From contig NZ_NMZQ01000003.1 of assembly GCF_010093125.1 (NCBI RefSeq), positions 62,001 to 126,000 on the forward strand: DNA of 64,000 nt, read 5' to 3'. Origin of the DNA: Veillonella sp. R32 (lineage in GTDB: Bacteria; Bacillota; Negativicutes; Veillonellales; Veillonellaceae). The position numbers and the translations under genes were made by a program. Below the pieces are notes generated by a model. The model saw only the letters and a list, made by a program, of their open reading frames with translations. It was not told the origin of the DNA and made no database searches. Positions 44,023 to 48,943 of the stretch are shown piece by piece. Each line of letters opens with the position of its first letter. Position 1 is the stretch's first letter.

Positions 44023-44817
44023 TTAAAAGGTTGCTTCAGGGATAGAAGCTTGTGGATGCTTCTGAGATTGTTCTTCTTGTGAGGAGCTATCTTGTTGCAT
44101 CCGGTCACCACGATGTGGTGGTGGCATAGGTGGTCGGAAATCACTACCTTGTGGACCAGCCATAGGCGATTGCATCATAGGAGGCATTCCTTGATGATTT
44201 TCAAAACCATTCATTGGTGGTTGTCCCATTGGTGGCATGCCTTGATGACGTTCATCACCATTCATTGGTGGCTGTCCCATTGGGGACATTCCTTGATGAC
44301 GTTCATCACCATTCATCGATGGCTGTCCCATTGGGGACATTCTCTTTTCAGAGTTAACATGCTTACCCTCGTGACGTTCCTGGGAGTGCTTTACTTTAGT
44401 GTCTGCATTAGCGCGTTCAGGTGTGTCTCCATTGGCTTTATCAGGCTGATACTGACGCTCTTGGCTATGATGTGCTTTCCGATCATAATCAGTTGGCATA
44501 TGGCCTGCATTTGTACGAGAAGCACCATATGAAGTATTTGGCATCAAGAAAATAGCTGCATTAGCTTCTACTTGATTATGTGCCATTGAACGGGCTCGTA
44601 CCATATCATCATAAGCAGTCGGCATAGTATTCGTTTCACTTTCCAATGCCATTTGTTGAGGCCCTTTCATAGAAACACTTGTTCCTACTGTATTGGGAGA
44701 AGTGGTTGCCTGTTGTGTCGCTGACGTCTCAGCTGCCAGTGATGTGCCCCAAAGCATGCCACCGAGTACACCTAGCAAAGCAACCTTTCTCAGTAAATTT
44801 TGAGACGGTTCTTTCAT
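44023..44817 (-). CDS. Secreted Met/Pro/Gly-rich repeat protein
   Basis: A 264-residue protein of unknown function with a Sec signal (residues 1-29, ending LAAE). The middle is hydrophilic. Residues 160-210 are three near-identical 17-residue units built from MSPMGQPPMNG and DERHQG, with a fourth decayed unit to about 227. The C-terminus is Ser/Gln-rich. The segment LESETNT...PNTSYGASR resembles LESEV...PNTMYADTR of the adjacent phytase, suggesting shared N-terminal ancestry without the catalytic domain. The Met- and His-rich repeats could bind metal, which is speculation. Confidence 0.7.
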   Translation of the reverse strand: MKEPSQNLLRKVALLGVLGGMLWGTSLAAETSATQQATTSPNTVGTSVSMKGPQQMALESETNTMPTAYDDMVRARSMAHNQVEANAAIFLMPNTSYGASRTNAGHMPTDYDRKAHHSQERQYQPDKANGDTPERANADTKVKHSQERHEGKHVNSEKRMSPMGQPSMNGDERHQGMSPMGQPPMNGDERHQGMPPMGQPPMNGFENHQGMPPMMQSPMAGPQGSDFRPPMPPPHRGDRMQQDSSSQEEQSQKHPQASIPEATF

Positions 44818-44855: not shown

Positions 44856-44924
44856 ATAGCAATCTCTTACAATGAGTTTTAATACGAGGTGAAAACTCAT
44901 TTCTTTGTAAGAGTTTCTTGCTAT
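44856..44924 (-). other. Long bulged hairpin upstream of the repeat-protein gene
   Basis: Three paired blocks occur in order: ATAGCAA/TTGCTAT, TCTTACAA/TTGTAAGA and TGAGTTTT/AAAACTCA, with small bulges of 2 and 5 bases and an 11-base loop. That makes 23 paired positions. It ends about 38 bases before the gene start, so it would lie in the leader. Confidence 0.65.
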
Positions 44925-45037
44925 GTGTATAGAATACCCCTACAAAATGAATTCCACATGTGAAAACTGTGAGAGTTGAGTGAAGTTTTCTCATGAATAT
45001 TCACACGGATTTCATGAACAGACTGATAATCCCTATT

Positions 45038-45060: not shown

Positions 45061-45223
45061 ATAAACAATTTAGTTATTATTAGATTTTCCTATTATAAGT
45101 TCTTTTTAAACAGAAGTATCATAAAAAGTATCATACTATATATTAAACATACGAGTAATCCACCTATAGTCAAACAACAGGCTTTTAGTATATAGTATAT
45201 ATAGTAATAGCAAGGAGGTAATC

Positions 45224-45721
45224 ATGACAGATCAGGAACATATGCAAGAAGCACTTATTGAAGCACGTAAAGCTTATACCTTAGGCGAAATTCCTATTGG
45301 TGCCATTATTGTAAAAGATGGCACTATTATCTCACGTCATCATAACCGTCGCGAACTAGACCATGATGCCACCGCACACGCTGAAATTTTAGTCATTCGC
45401 GAAGCTTGTGAAATACTTGACCGTTGGCGGTTGACCGGTTGCACGCTTTATGTTACTATAGAGCCATGTCCGATGTGCGCTGGTGCTATTATTAACAGTC
45501 GAATTGACCGCGTTGTATATGGTAGCAGTGATTACAAAGGAGGCGCTGTAGAGTCGTTATTTAACGTACTTACCCATCCAGGCTTAAATCACGAACCAGA
45601 AATTTTAAGTGGTGTCCTCGCTGATGAGTGTAGTCAGATAATGAAAGACTTTTTTAAAGAGCGTCGTAAAAAACGGAGAAGTACCCAAGAGGCTGAAGGG
45701 TCCGCACTCGAAATGCGGTAG
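45224..45721 (+). CDS. tadA: tRNA-specific adenosine deaminase TadA (3' end overlaps tRNA-Ser)
   Basis: A 165-residue zinc deaminase that converts A34 of tRNA-Arg(ACG) to inosine. Zinc ligands and catalytic Glu are in HAEILVI (HAE) and PCPMCAGA (PC-x2-C). The start has AAGGAGG. Residues 1-150 are the normal enzyme and finish in the usual basic tail FFKERRKKR. Residues 151-165 (RRSTQEAEGSALEMR) and the TAG stop are encoded by the first half of the tRNA-Ser gene that begins at 45675, on the same strand. No earlier stop exists in frame. Confidence 0.95.
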   Translation: MTDQEHMQEALIEARKAYTLGEIPIGAIIVKDGTIISRHHNRRELDHDATAHAEILVIREACEILDRWRLTGCTLYVTIEPCPMCAGAIINSRIDRVVYGSSDYKGGAVESLFNVLTHPGLNHEPEILSGVLADECSQIMKDFFKERRKKRRSTQEAEGSALEMR

Positions 45722-45766
45722 GTCGGCAAAACCGGCGCGGGGGTTCAAATCCCTCCTTCTCCGCCA
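45675..45766 (+). tRNA. tRNA-Ser (anticodon CGA)
   Basis: A complete class II tRNA. The acceptor arms are GGAGAAG (45675-45681) and CTTCTCC (45756-45762), with discriminator G and an encoded CCA (45764-45766). The D arm lies around CCCAAGAGGCTGAAGGG. The anticodon stem is CCGCA/TGCGG with loop CTCGAAA, anticodon CGA at 45709-45711, reading UCG. The long variable arm GTCGG/CCGGC is typical of serine tRNA, and the T arm contains GGTTCAAAT. The first 47 bases are also the end of tadA. Confidence 0.96.
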
Positions 45767-45805: not shown

Positions 45806-45856
45806 AAACCTCTTACAATACTAGGTAATATCTAGTATCATAAGAGGTTTTTCTTT
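45806..45856 (+). terminator. Terminator after tRNA-Ser
   Basis: AAACCTCTTA pairs with TAAGAGGTTT, enclosing an inner ATACTAG/CTAGTAT stem, and is followed by TTTCTTTTT. It closes the tadA-tRNA unit and faces the convergent secreted-protein gene. Confidence 0.85.
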
Positions 45857-45917
45857 TTGTCAACTCATCAGAAATTAGCCATAGTTTTCAACTGTTTCCG
45901 TCTAATTTCCGTCTAGC

Positions 45918-46670
45918 CTACTTAAAGCTCTTGATATAATTTTCAAACACTGGCGCAAACGCTTTTCGTTCTACATCAGAGGTAATCATCACATAGGCCA
46001 CTGGATTGGGCTGTTTTAAAATCATCGCCCCCTGCACATAGAATGGCACCTCAACACCTTGCGCATTGATAAATAAGCGGGTGTCTGCTATATAGGTAGG
46101 ATACTGGGTACCTTTTAATTCAGTCCAAGGCGTTTGATCTGCCATGTCAACTATCATATTCAGGCTTGGTGAATTGGTAGTCCCCTTTGTTAACGCACCT
46201 TGTAAAAATGTATTAATCTGCTGTTCACTCTGAAGCCACATTGCATTAATCATAGGCAACTGTGCTTTTACAAATGTTGGATTTAATAGAGCGGAAAATC
46301 CCTTTGTATTTTCTTGAGTGAGCTCCATAGTAAATACATTAGCTGTTTTCAAAGATTTTTTATCTTTTAGCTGCCACTGATAAGCATCAACGGCTTCACC
46401 TAATTTAAAATCCTTATTTTGAATTGCTTTGCCCGTTTCTTCAATGGCAGTTTTTTCTACTAAATCAAGATAGCCTGGAATCAACATACTATTTGATAGG
46501 CGACTTACCGTTACATTACTTGGCAAATTAGCAGTACCACCAATTACTTTTTGGGCCACTGCTTTGCCATTAGTATTCGCTGACAAACTAGCCGCATTAA
46601 CAGCCGGCACAGTAGTGACTAGACCGACTAAGCAAGTCGCTGTCAACGCCCATTTCTTCCATTGTTTCAT
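45918..46670 (-). CDS. Secreted protein of an unrecognised family (paralog 1 of 3)
   Basis: A 250-residue protein with a Sec signal (KKWALTATCLVGLVTTVPAVNAA). I do not recognise the family. It shares with the next protein the blocks VTVSRLSN, DAYQWQLKD, DQTPW, the sequence around PTYIADTRLF, and PNPVAYVMITSDVE followed by FAPVFENYI. No catalytic motif is obvious. I use the ATG at 46670 because AGGGGG precedes it, and upstream in-frame ATGs are less supported. It is the last of three tandem genes. Confidence 0.78.
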   Translation of the reverse strand: MKQWKKWALTATCLVGLVTTVPAVNAASLSANTNGKAVAQKVIGGTANLPSNVTVSRLSNSMLIPGYLDLVEKTAIEETGKAIQNKDFKLGEAVDAYQWQLKDKKSLKTANVFTMELTQENTKGFSALLNPTFVKAQLPMINAMWLQSEQQINTFLQGALTKGTTNSPSLNMIVDMADQTPWTELKGTQYPTYIADTRLFINAQGVEVPFYVQGAMILKQPNPVAYVMITSDVERKAFAPVFENYIKSFK

Positions 46671-46710
46671 TAATAAGCCCCCTATTTTAAATTTCATACA
46701 TATATCCTTC

Positions 46711-47592
46711 TTACAGCTCCTGAATAAACTGTACAAAACGAGGCGCAAACACGTCTTTTTCTACATCTGAAGTAACTAATACATAAGCTACTGGATTTGG
46801 TTCAGTTAATACCACGGCACCTTGTAAATAATATGGTAATTCTAAACCATTAGCTCCTGCAAAAAAGCGTGTGCTTGCCATGTAAGCAGGATGTGTACTA
46901 TGAGGTAAACGAGCCCAAGGTGTTTGGTCTTTCAATTCGGCTTCAGTATACGCAAATGCAGCCGCACCGCTGTTCATAGCTAGGGCTTGTACTTTTTTAT
47001 ATAATTTACCATCACTTTGGAGCCATTGCTCATTTATACTTGGCAATTGACTATCGATAAACTCTTTATGAGCTAGATTAGAAAAACCATTCGTTGTTTC
47101 TGGTGTTAACACTAGACCAAAAACGGTAGCCGTCTTACGGCCGTCTGCATCCTTTAACTGCCACTGATACACATCTATTTTTTCACCAAGACGATAGTCA
47201 TTCATATATTTCAATTGTTTCTGTTGCCGTTCATACGCTTTTAAGCTAGCTTGCCGTTCGTCACCAGTTAACAATTTATTATCTTCCCAACTCCGCAAAC
47301 GAGGCCCCTTTGCCACATCTTCTTGTAAATTTTTTTCGATTAATTCTGCAAAAGCAGGGACAATCACAGTATTAGATAAACGACGAATTGTCACATCACG
47401 AGGCACTGTAATAGGGCCTGTATGACCTAATACTTCTATAGTTTCATTAGTTACAGCTTGGCTTGTAACGACTGAAGGTGTAACAGCTTGAGCTGTCCCA
47501 TCAGTAGCCATCGGCGTGGCCCCTTGACCATAAAAAGGTAAACTAGCCACAACTAAAGCCGCCACTAAGGCACTGCGTTTCCAAAATTTCAT
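46711..47592 (-). CDS. Secreted protein of the same unrecognised family (paralog 2 of 3)
   Basis: A 293-residue protein with a Sec signal (KFWKRSALVAALVVASLPFYGQG). It is collinear with its downstream neighbour: VTIRRLSN, DVYQWQLKD, DQTPW, TRFFAGANGLELPYYLQGA and PNPVAYVLVTSDVE. A charged insert of about 35 residues (GPRLRSWEDNKLLTGDERQA) distinguishes it. The ATG at 47592 has AAGGAGGAG upstream. Tandem arrangement and similarity indicate gene duplication. An extracytoplasmic role is inferred from the signal only. Confidence 0.78.
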   Translation of the reverse strand: MKFWKRSALVAALVVASLPFYGQGATPMATDGTAQAVTPSVVTSQAVTNETIEVLGHTGPITVPRDVTIRRLSNTVIVPAFAELIEKNLQEDVAKGPRLRSWEDNKLLTGDERQASLKAYERQQKQLKYMNDYRLGEKIDVYQWQLKDADGRKTATVFGLVLTPETTNGFSNLAHKEFIDSQLPSINEQWLQSDGKLYKKVQALAMNSGAAAFAYTEAELKDQTPWARLPHSTHPAYMASTRFFAGANGLELPYYLQGAVVLTEPNPVAYVLVTSDVEKDVFAPRFVQFIQEL

Positions 47593-47605
47593 AGCGTTCT
47601 CCTCC

Positions 47606-48943
47606 TTATTGAATTCCATAGGTTGCTTTTAATTGTTTTTCCCAATAATTAAAATCCCCATCATTCGTAGCTAAGAAGGTAAATACAGGGCCTTCTTTTT
47701 CAAAACGGATTATATTAATACTCCCTACAGGGATTTCGTAACTATCAAAGGTAAGTGCCATGCGACTGTCCATATATAAAGCAGGGCCTAATTTAGAATT
47801 TACCGGTTTAATTTGGCCTAACGTATCCGCTTCTAAATTCGAGGTATCAAAAAATTTCTGTAACCCTTCACGAACTTTCACAGACATCGCTAATTTCTCT
47901 TTAGCCCGCTCATTGGTAGTAGCATCCTTAGCCAATTGCTTTTCATGATTTACTAAATCAGCCACGATAGCTTTCACGAATTTATCCTTATATAGGTTCA
48001 CAAAGGTATTAAATGTAGTCGCATCTTGTGAAGTTTTAACCGCTTTATAACCATCAATCGTGGCTTGACGGAACGCTTCAGGGCTATAGGAAGTTGGGTA
48101 TGGTGCTAGCCAAGCTTCGTTTTCTGCTAACACGGTGGTATTAAAGTCTTTCATAAACTGCCAGGTATGAAACATCTTTTCAGAATCAGCTGAGGTAGCA
48201 AACGCCGTCGCATCTGGTACATTGCGCACAATACCCGTAGCCTGCTGAGCTGTTTCTAACGAATCTAATAAGTTCAAGCTACCCCCGCGTATATTAGTGC
48301 TTGGTGCCGTTGTACCATCCACTTCTTTAGCCAACGCTTGCCATAAAGCTTTCGTTAGCTTTAATTCAGCCCGCTCACCTTGAATATAATCTTTGCCCAG
48401 CGCCACATCCACTACATAGGCGGTGTGAACACCTTTTGCATCTTCCCCACGTAGTTGATAGGCATTCCAATCTCTGAAAATTTCACCTTGAAACTGCTGC
48501 AACTCAGGTACATTCACTTCTTTAACCTTTGCTAACTGACGAATATTATTTACATATTCCTCATTAAATTGTTTAGCGGAAAGAAACGCCGTACCATCAA
48601 TCATACCTTGTGGCGTTATCATTCGTTTTAGATCGAATACCGTTACGCCCTGAGGTACATTCAACTTTTTATTGTCCACTGTTGTAAGCACGGAACTAAC
48701 TAATACTGGTTGAACTCCTTTTGCCGTTGTCATCGCTACTGTGGAAGTGGCCGCCTCTTCTTTCACGCCTTCCCCTACCACGCCTACCGCTTTGTTATCT
48801 TTAGCTGCAGACTGCGAAGCTTCGCTTACGGCATATACCATACCTAAGGCTGCACTATTTACTTCAGCGCCTTGCACAGCACTTCCCAAACTGCTCCCTA
48901 AAAGTGCTGCCATTACTAACCCATATATTTGTTTTCGTTGCAT
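47606..48943 (-). CDS. Secreted protein, distant and longer relative (paralog 3 of 3)
   Basis: A 445-residue protein with a Sec signal ending near VQGAE. The order of blocks parallels the other two: VTVFDLKR, then DWNAYQLRGEDAKGVHTAYVV, then YMDSRMALTFDSYEIPVGSI and FTFLATNDGDFNYW at the end. It also has an extra helical middle domain of about 180 residues. I know no function. It is the promoter-proximal gene of the trio, 13 bases upstream of the next. Confidence 0.72.
   Translation of the reverse strand: MQRKQIYGLVMAALLGSSLGSAVQGAEVNSAALGMVYAVSEASQSAAKDNKAVGVVGEGVKEEAATSTVAMTTAKGVQPVLVSSVLTTVDNKKLNVPQGVTVFDLKRMITPQGMIDGTAFLSAKQFNEEYVNNIRQLAKVKEVNVPELQQFQGEIFRDWNAYQLRGEDAKGVHTAYVVDVALGKDYIQGERAELKLTKALWQALAKEVDGTTAPSTNIRGGSLNLLDSLETAQQATGIVRNVPDATAFATSADSEKMFHTWQFMKDFNTTVLAENEAWLAPYPTSYSPEAFRQATIDGYKAVKTSQDATTFNTFVNLYKDKFVKAIVADLVNHEKQLAKDATTNERAKEKLAMSVKVREGLQKFFDTSNLEADTLGQIKPVNSKLGPALYMDSRMALTFDSYEIPVGSINIIRFEKEGPVFTFLATNDGDFNYWEKQLKATYGIQ

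What the first reader, a model, noticed from the sequence alone, without database searches (positions are those of the whole stretch)
45224..45766. tRNA-Ser(CGA) gene begins inside tadA and supplies its stop codon
The tRNA starts at 45675 while tadA runs to 45721, same strand. The last 15 codons of TadA and its TAG come from the acceptor, D and anticodon arms. If both are made from one transcript, RNase P cutting at the tRNA 5' end removes the tadA stop codon and leaves a non-stop mRNA for ribosome rescue. Unprocessed RNA gives TadA but no tRNA. The overlap thus sets tRNA maturation against production of a tRNA-modifying enzyme, a possible feedback circuit.
Basis: partly seen in the sequence, partly recalled or inferred. 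Interest (0 to 1): 0.75.

Follow-up and report, generated by a model that had tools for sequence, protein, structure and literature searches.

The report
tRNA gene supplies tadA's stop codon
In Veillonella bacteria, and separately in several other Firmicutes, the gene for the tRNA-editing enzyme TadA has lost its own stop codon and borrows one from the serine tRNA gene it runs into, so cutting out the tRNA must destroy the end of the enzyme's message; the arrangement is real and recurrent, but nothing here shows that it works as a control circuit.

Summary
tadA (45224-45721, +) ends in TAG inside a complete CCA-encoding tRNA-Ser(CGA) gene (45675-45766, +): a 47-nt overlap. A cut at the tRNA 5' end leaves 150 codons plus one base and no stop. 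The overlap occurs in 27 of 28 Veillonellaceae genomes, in two reading frames with different tails (STQEAEGSALEMR* or KEKYPRG*). It also occurs, apparently independently, in a second Veillonellales family and in four other Firmicutes families. tadA followed by tRNA-Ser(CGA) is an old pairing: found in 66 of 100 other Negativicutes loci and 58 of 68 other phylum loci, often 0-15 nt apart. In the latter group tadA commonly sits between tRNA genes, with its substrate tRNA-Arg(ACG) nearby. No conserved promoter lies in the 3' end of tadA; the terminator follows the tRNA. Best reading: one tadA-tRNA transcript, spacer shrinkage, stop loss, and a dispensable tail. TadA translation and RNase P maturation then compete on each RNA, and tmRNA/SmpB and RqcH (all present) clear the non-stop product. 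The feedback-circuit idea is unsupported: tRNA-Ser(CGA) is not TadA's substrate, sister genus G007 has a normal stop, and the tail sequence is not conserved. Transcript and protein data are missing.

The parts
45224..45721 (+). tadA, tRNA adenosine(34) deaminase, 165 aa
   Evidence: ORF; NCBIfam NF008113 190 bits, cut-off 150; PF14437 157 bits; solved TadA structures match up to E 1.4e-51
45213..45219 (+). Shine-Dalgarno-like AAGGAGG upstream of the tadA ATG
   Evidence: read directly from the sequence
45675..45766 (+). tRNA-Ser(CGA), 92 nt, CCA encoded; the only copy found in the genome
   Evidence: ARAGORN, Rfam 52.9 bits, genome tRNA census
45675..45721 (+). overlap of tadA and the tRNA gene, 47 nt
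45674..45675 (+). expected RNase P cut (between 45674 and 45675); leaves 150 codons + 1 nt
   Evidence: tRNA 5' end; arithmetic; cleavage itself is inferred
45719..45721 (+). TAG stop of tadA = tRNA nt 45-47, first bases after the anticodon stem
45806..45861 (+). hairpin with T-tract on both sides: likely terminator after the tRNA (two-way)
   Evidence: fold -22.5 kcal/mol, z -4.8; terminator scan finds it on the - strand
45105..45196 (+). candidate tadA promoter region (TTTAAA-18-TATCAT; TAGTCA-18-TATAGT)
   Evidence: consensus matches only

Best explanation
tadA and tRNA-Ser(CGA) form one two-gene transcription unit: tadA promoter, tadA, tRNA, terminator. The pairing is ancient in Firmicutes; the spacer is often only a few bases. 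In the Veillonella ancestor tadA lost its own stop and reads into the tRNA gene, which happens to hold in-frame stops in two of its three frames. Full-length TadA with a short tRNA-encoded tail is made only from uncut transcripts, by ribosomes that finish before the tRNA is folded and cut. RNase P cleavage releases the tRNA and leaves a non-stop mRNA of 150 codons plus one base, whose ribosomes are cleared by tmRNA-SmpB or RqcH. The tail is dispensable: many TadA proteins end at the equivalent of residue 149. The overlap is most likely a tolerated outcome of spacer shrinkage in an mRNA-tRNA operon, with a built-in but probably unselected limit on TadA output per transcript. Shown: anatomy, conservation, repeated origin, presence of rescue factors. 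Inferred: co-transcription, RNase P order, rescue, neutrality.
For: Overlap in 27/28 Veillonellaceae genomes and six named genomes. Two frames with different tails: 47-nt overlap in 24 genomes, 22-nt in 3, matching the only two frames with a stop inside the tRNA. Graded series of gaps outside the family: 66/100 loci have tRNA-Ser(CGA) within 200 nt, 28 at 0-15 nt, one overlap; in f2, close relatives have gaps of 5, 0 and -24 nt. Overlaps in four further families. No conserved promoter motif in the 3' end of tadA: best scores 7-8 of 12 against 7.9-8.6 on average elsewhere in the gene; the GATAAT of the window is not kept. Terminator after the tRNA. Last invariant TadA residue is R148 and many TadAs stop at 149; the tail has low model confidence, 65 then 53, against over 90 for most of the core. 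tmRNA, SmpB and RqcH present.
Against: No transcript, ribosome-profiling or protein data were available. Retention over a genus-wide radiation could reflect selection. Absence of a consensus promoter is weak evidence against a tRNA promoter inside tadA. The last ten codons before the tRNA are somewhat more conserved at codon level (0.70 against a mean of 0.54), which I attribute to AAA/CGT codon bias and leader constraints but did not prove.
Confidence: 0.65

Rival explanations
1. Selected regulatory switch, in the spirit of the first reader: the overlap is kept because RNase P cleavage caps TadA made per transcript, tying enzyme output to tRNA maturation.
For: Kept in 27/28 genomes of the family; overlap label needs 6 changes on the wider TadA tree, at least 3 forced by well-supported branches; in all 24 frame-A genomes base -1 is C, which can pair with G73 and lengthen the acceptor stem, a feature reported to hinder RNase P binding when leader pairs with RCCA (PMC9433436 abstract).
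Against: tRNA-Ser(CGA) is not a TadA substrate; sister genus G007 lacks the overlap; the C at -1 is also the first base of an Arg codon; the gap distribution runs smoothly from tens of bases to overlap, as drift would give.
Confidence: 0.17
2. Independent promoter: most tRNA-Ser(CGA) is made from a promoter inside tadA, and the overlap is merely shared DNA with little conflict.
For: Loci with longer gaps have TATAAT-like boxes just before the tRNA (for example L239, L278, L282; read), so a separate tRNA promoter can exist in relatives.
Against: No conserved -10/-35 pair in the 3' end of Veillonella tadA. With no terminator between the genes, tadA transcripts would still carry the tRNA and be cut.
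Confidence: 0.13
3. ArfA-like non-stop expression: RNase P wins almost always, so TadA is made mainly from non-stop mRNA and is tagged by tmRNA or released untagged as a 150-residue enzyme, making TadA level follow ribosome-rescue capacity.
For: arfA mRNA is cut by RNase III before its stop and its product is controlled by trans-translation (PMC3989581). The RNase P product here would be a complete TadA by length. Runaway transcription in B. subtilis (PMC13323073 abstract) would let the tRNA fold before the ribosome arrives.
Against: Nothing is known of processing order in Veillonella; a needed enzyme routed mainly to degradation would be costly.
Confidence: 0.12
4. Assembly or annotation artefact.
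For: None found.
Against: Same architecture in many independent assemblies and in other families.
Confidence: 0.01

Closest known systems
E. coli arfA, a gene expressed from mRNA made non-stop by RNase III (PMC3989581)
   Same: A processing endonuclease is expected to remove the stop codon in normal life, leaving a product that is still active-length and a substrate for trans-translation.
   Different: Here the nuclease would be RNase P, the structure cut is a functional tRNA gene, the protein is not a rescue factor, and cleavage is inferred, not shown.
tRNA punctuation in mitochondrial transcripts, with genes whose stop is missing or at the tRNA border (PMC9674279)
   Same: tRNAs flank and release mRNAs by RNase P; cleavage defines the mRNA 3' end; non-stop mRNAs arise.
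   Different: In mitochondria stops are completed by polyadenylation; here the stop lies inside the tRNA and cannot be completed after the cut. Bacterial chromosome with tmRNA.
Bacterial mixed mRNA-tRNA operons, such as E. coli secG-leuU (own knowledge; the search returned papers naming these genes but I read none for this)
   Same: Protein gene and tRNA on one transcript, separated by processing.
   Different: There the protein gene keeps its own stop upstream of the tRNA.

Membership tests
TadA (tRNA adenosine-34 deaminase) | Sequence family above curated cut-off with HAE and PCxxC zinc motifs | tested here: met
   NF008113 190 bits against cut-off 150; motifs conserved in alignment A1
tRNA-Ser(CGA) | Class II tRNA fold, CGA anticodon, CCA end | tested here: met
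   ARAGORN and Rfam, fold
Programmed non-stop mRNA made by an endonuclease (arfA kind) | Cleavage site lies upstream of the only in-frame stop | tested here: met
   150 codons + 1 nt before the tRNA 5' end; next in-frame stop inside the tRNA
Programmed non-stop mRNA made by an endonuclease (arfA kind) | Cleavage occurs in vivo before or during translation and the protein is tagged by tmRNA | not testable with these tools
   needs RNA end mapping and proteomics; tmRNA, SmpB and RqcH genes are present
mRNA-tRNA transcription unit (punctuation type) | Same strand, no terminator or promoter between, terminator after the tRNA | tested here: met
   consensus scans only
Feedback circuit of TadA on its own tRNA | The overlapping tRNA is a substrate of TadA | tested here: not met
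   overlapping tRNA is Ser(CGA); the A34 tRNA found, Arg(ACG), is elsewhere in this genome; TadA target from PMC13170351

The most novel reading that the evidence does not exclude
RNase P routinely turns tadA mRNA into a non-stop message, so TadA supply in Veillonella and several other Firmicutes lineages is set by the race between ribosomes and tRNA maturation and by tmRNA capacity: a bacterial counterpart of tRNA punctuation that evolved several times at the same gene pair.
Probability: 0.15. Interest if true: 0.8.

Novelty: new variant of a known kind. Interest (0 to 1): 0.55.

Why it matters
A protein gene whose only stop codon lies inside a functional tRNA forces a choice on each RNA molecule between making protein and making tRNA. 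That it recurs at the same gene pair makes a natural series (gap of tens of bases, abutting, overlapping) for testing what RNase P cleavage costs a neighbouring mRNA and how much routine non-stop mRNA a bacterium tolerates. It also shows that tadA often sits inside tRNA gene clusters, near its own substrate tRNA-Arg(ACG), in other Firmicutes. I found no paper describing either point in the open-access library searched, which does not hold most subscription journals.

Tried and rejected
Internal tRNA promoter: scanned the last 150 nt of tadA in 34 Veillonellaceae loci; no conserved site. The window's GATAAT at 45637-45642 becomes GATTAT, AATTAT, AATCAT, ATTGAT or GATGAT elsewhere. Conserved tail peptide: rejected, two frames give two tails. 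Selection on the TAG inside the tRNA: uninformative, since T at that first position is universal in the 66 tRNAs compared outside the family and TAG itself occurs in 26 of them; only the frame-B clade, which does not use it, has CAG. Argument that a stop should have been regained by drift: judged too weak, as few single changes before the tRNA make a stop. Codon-conservation test: no promoter-like block. A tRNA census of eight overlap genomes gave only a list without anticodons and did not tell whether L302's genome has another tRNA-Ser(CGA). Literature searches found no report of this overlap.

Full report
WHAT IS THERE. The window lies in a 2.24-Mb genome of a Veillonella relative; its closest named relatives in the collection are all Veillonella. 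tadA occupies 45224-45721 on the + strand and ends in TAG. It is a true TadA by NCBIfam and Pfam. tRNA-Ser(CGA) occupies 45675-45766 on the same strand with its CCA encoded. The overlap is 47 nt. The bridging codon CGG takes one base from the leader and two from the tRNA; 15 codons in all, RRSTQEAEGSALEMR, depend on tRNA bases, and the TAG is tRNA nt 45-47, directly after the anticodon stem. A cut at the tRNA 5' end leaves 150 codons plus one base and no stop.

TRANSCRIPTION UNIT. Candidate tadA promoters lie at 45105-45196 by consensus only. A stable hairpin flanked by T-tracts follows the tRNA (45806-45850 and the T-run to 45861, and for the other strand). There is no terminator between tadA and the tRNA. 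The best promoter-like matches in the last 150 nt of tadA score 7-8 of 12 in 34 loci, against means of 7.9 to 8.6 elsewhere in the same genes, and fall at different places. The GATAAT seen in the window is not conserved. Co-transcription is therefore the best reading, but it is not shown.

CONSERVATION IN THE FAMILY. All 28 family genomes have tadA next to tRNA-Ser(CGA). In 24 the overlap is 47 nt with the tail ..RRSTQEAEGSALEMR or a close variant; in 3 (G004-G006) an extra base before the tRNA shifts the frame and TadA ends ..KEKYPRG* at a TGA in the tRNA D region, a 22-nt overlap. Named V. magna, V. rogosae, V. atypica and Veillonella sp. VA139 and VA142 have the first form and Veillonella sp. 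KGMB01456 the second. The one exception, G007 (genus g2), ends TadA with its own TAG, 31 nt before the tRNA. Of the three frames that could enter the window's tRNA, only the two observed meet a stop inside it. So the tail sequence is dictated by the tRNA and frame, and the overlap needs no more than loss of the original stop.

WIDER COMPARISON. In 100 other Negativicutes loci, chosen for spread and not at random, 66 have tRNA-Ser(CGA) within 200 nt after tadA, 28 at 0-15 nt, and one, G038 (L201), overlaps by 24 nt; its relatives G036 and G037 have gaps of 0 and 5 nt. In 68 loci from the rest of the phylum sample, 58 have tRNA-Ser(CGA) within 400 nt. Five overlap by 14 nt, with TadA ending ..DG* or ..GG* at the TGA of the D-stem (four of them ..RRDG* or ..RDG* or ..RRGG*), and one overlaps by 56 nt; Rfam confirms these tRNAs. 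In L302 the tRNA is cut short after the anticodon arm, yet tadA still uses its TGA. On a TadA tree the overlap state needs 6 changes, at least 3 forced by well-supported branches; on the Negativicutes tree at least 2. TadA is short, so deep forks are weak. In 41 of the 68 loci a tRNA, mostly tRNA-Arg(CCU), ends within 150 nt (median 26) before the putative tadA start, and tRNA-Arg(ACG), the TadA substrate, lies within 1.2 kb upstream in at least 34 (a lower bound, because many stretches held only 600 nt upstream).

WHAT THE TAIL DOES. The last invariant residue of TadA is R148 and many TadAs end at residue 149. The solved S. aureus protein (2b3j; organism from own knowledge) ends at the equivalent of about residue 154. 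In the AlphaFold2 model most of the core is above 90, residues 151-160 average 65 and 161-165 average 53. The RNase P product, 150 residues, would be a full TadA by length. I conclude that the tail is probably dispensable.

HOW IT MOST LIKELY WORKS. On each transcript a ribosome can reach the TAG only if the tRNA has not yet been cut out. RNase P cleavage yields tRNA-Ser(CGA) and a non-stop mRNA. tmRNA with tag AKENFALAA, SmpB and RqcH are present to clear stalled ribosomes. Which step usually wins is unknown. In B. subtilis RNA polymerase outruns ribosomes (PMC13323073 abstract), which would favour RNase P; whether that holds in Veillonella is unknown. C at -1 in all 24 frame-A genomes can pair with G73; leader pairing with the RCCA end hinders RNase P binding (PMC9433436 abstract), so cleavage may be slowed, but the same C also starts an Arg codon.

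The non-stop consequence is sound. The feedback claim is not: TadA edits tRNA-Arg(ACG) (PMC13170351), here in two copies on another contig, and a second tRNA-Ser with UGA anticodon may also read UCG (wobble is own knowledge). TCG makes up 7.6% of Ser codons in the window's long ORFs. Retention through the genus may mean selection or only that a stop is hard to regain without trimming conserved arginines. I give a selected regulatory role 0.17 and ArfA-like expression 0.12.

NOVELTY. Removal of a stop by a processing nuclease is known for arfA (PMC3989581), and mRNA release by tRNA excision is known in mitochondria (PMC9674279). The combination, in a bacterial chromosome, recurrent at one gene pair, was not found in the papers searched. 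I rate it a new variant of a known kind.

Noticed in passing
L288, L292, L298-L302, L305-L308, L311, L313 and others: Outside Negativicutes tadA often sits inside a tRNA gene cluster of the order Ser(UGA)-Ser(GCU)-Arg(ACG)-Arg(CCU)-tadA-Ser(CGA)-Ser(GGA), that is, beside its own substrate tRNA-Arg(ACG).
   Followed up: partly
L302, just after the tadA stop: tRNA-Ser(CGA) is truncated after the anticodon arm, with no ARAGORN or Rfam hit, yet tadA still ends at its TGA: an apparent fossil of the overlap.
   Followed up: partly
L298, 1 nt after the tadA stop: A 5' half of tRNA-Ser(CGA) abuts tadA, and a complete tRNA-Ser(CGA) lies 78 nt after the stop; possible scar of duplication or integration.
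   Followed up: no
window 44857-44925: Long near-perfect inverted repeat (TAGCAATCTCTTACAATGAGTTTT .. AAAACTCATTTCTTTGTAAGAGTTTCTTGCTA) between the ORF 44023-44817(-) and tadA.
   Followed up: no
window 44023-44817 (-): 264-aa ORF with an apparent signal peptide and tandem Met/Pro/Gly/His-rich repeats (MSPMGQPPMNGDERHQG-like).
   Followed up: no
window 45918-48943 (-): Three neighbouring ORFs with apparent signal peptides (276, 302, 445 aa); at least the first two look like paralogues.
   Followed up: no
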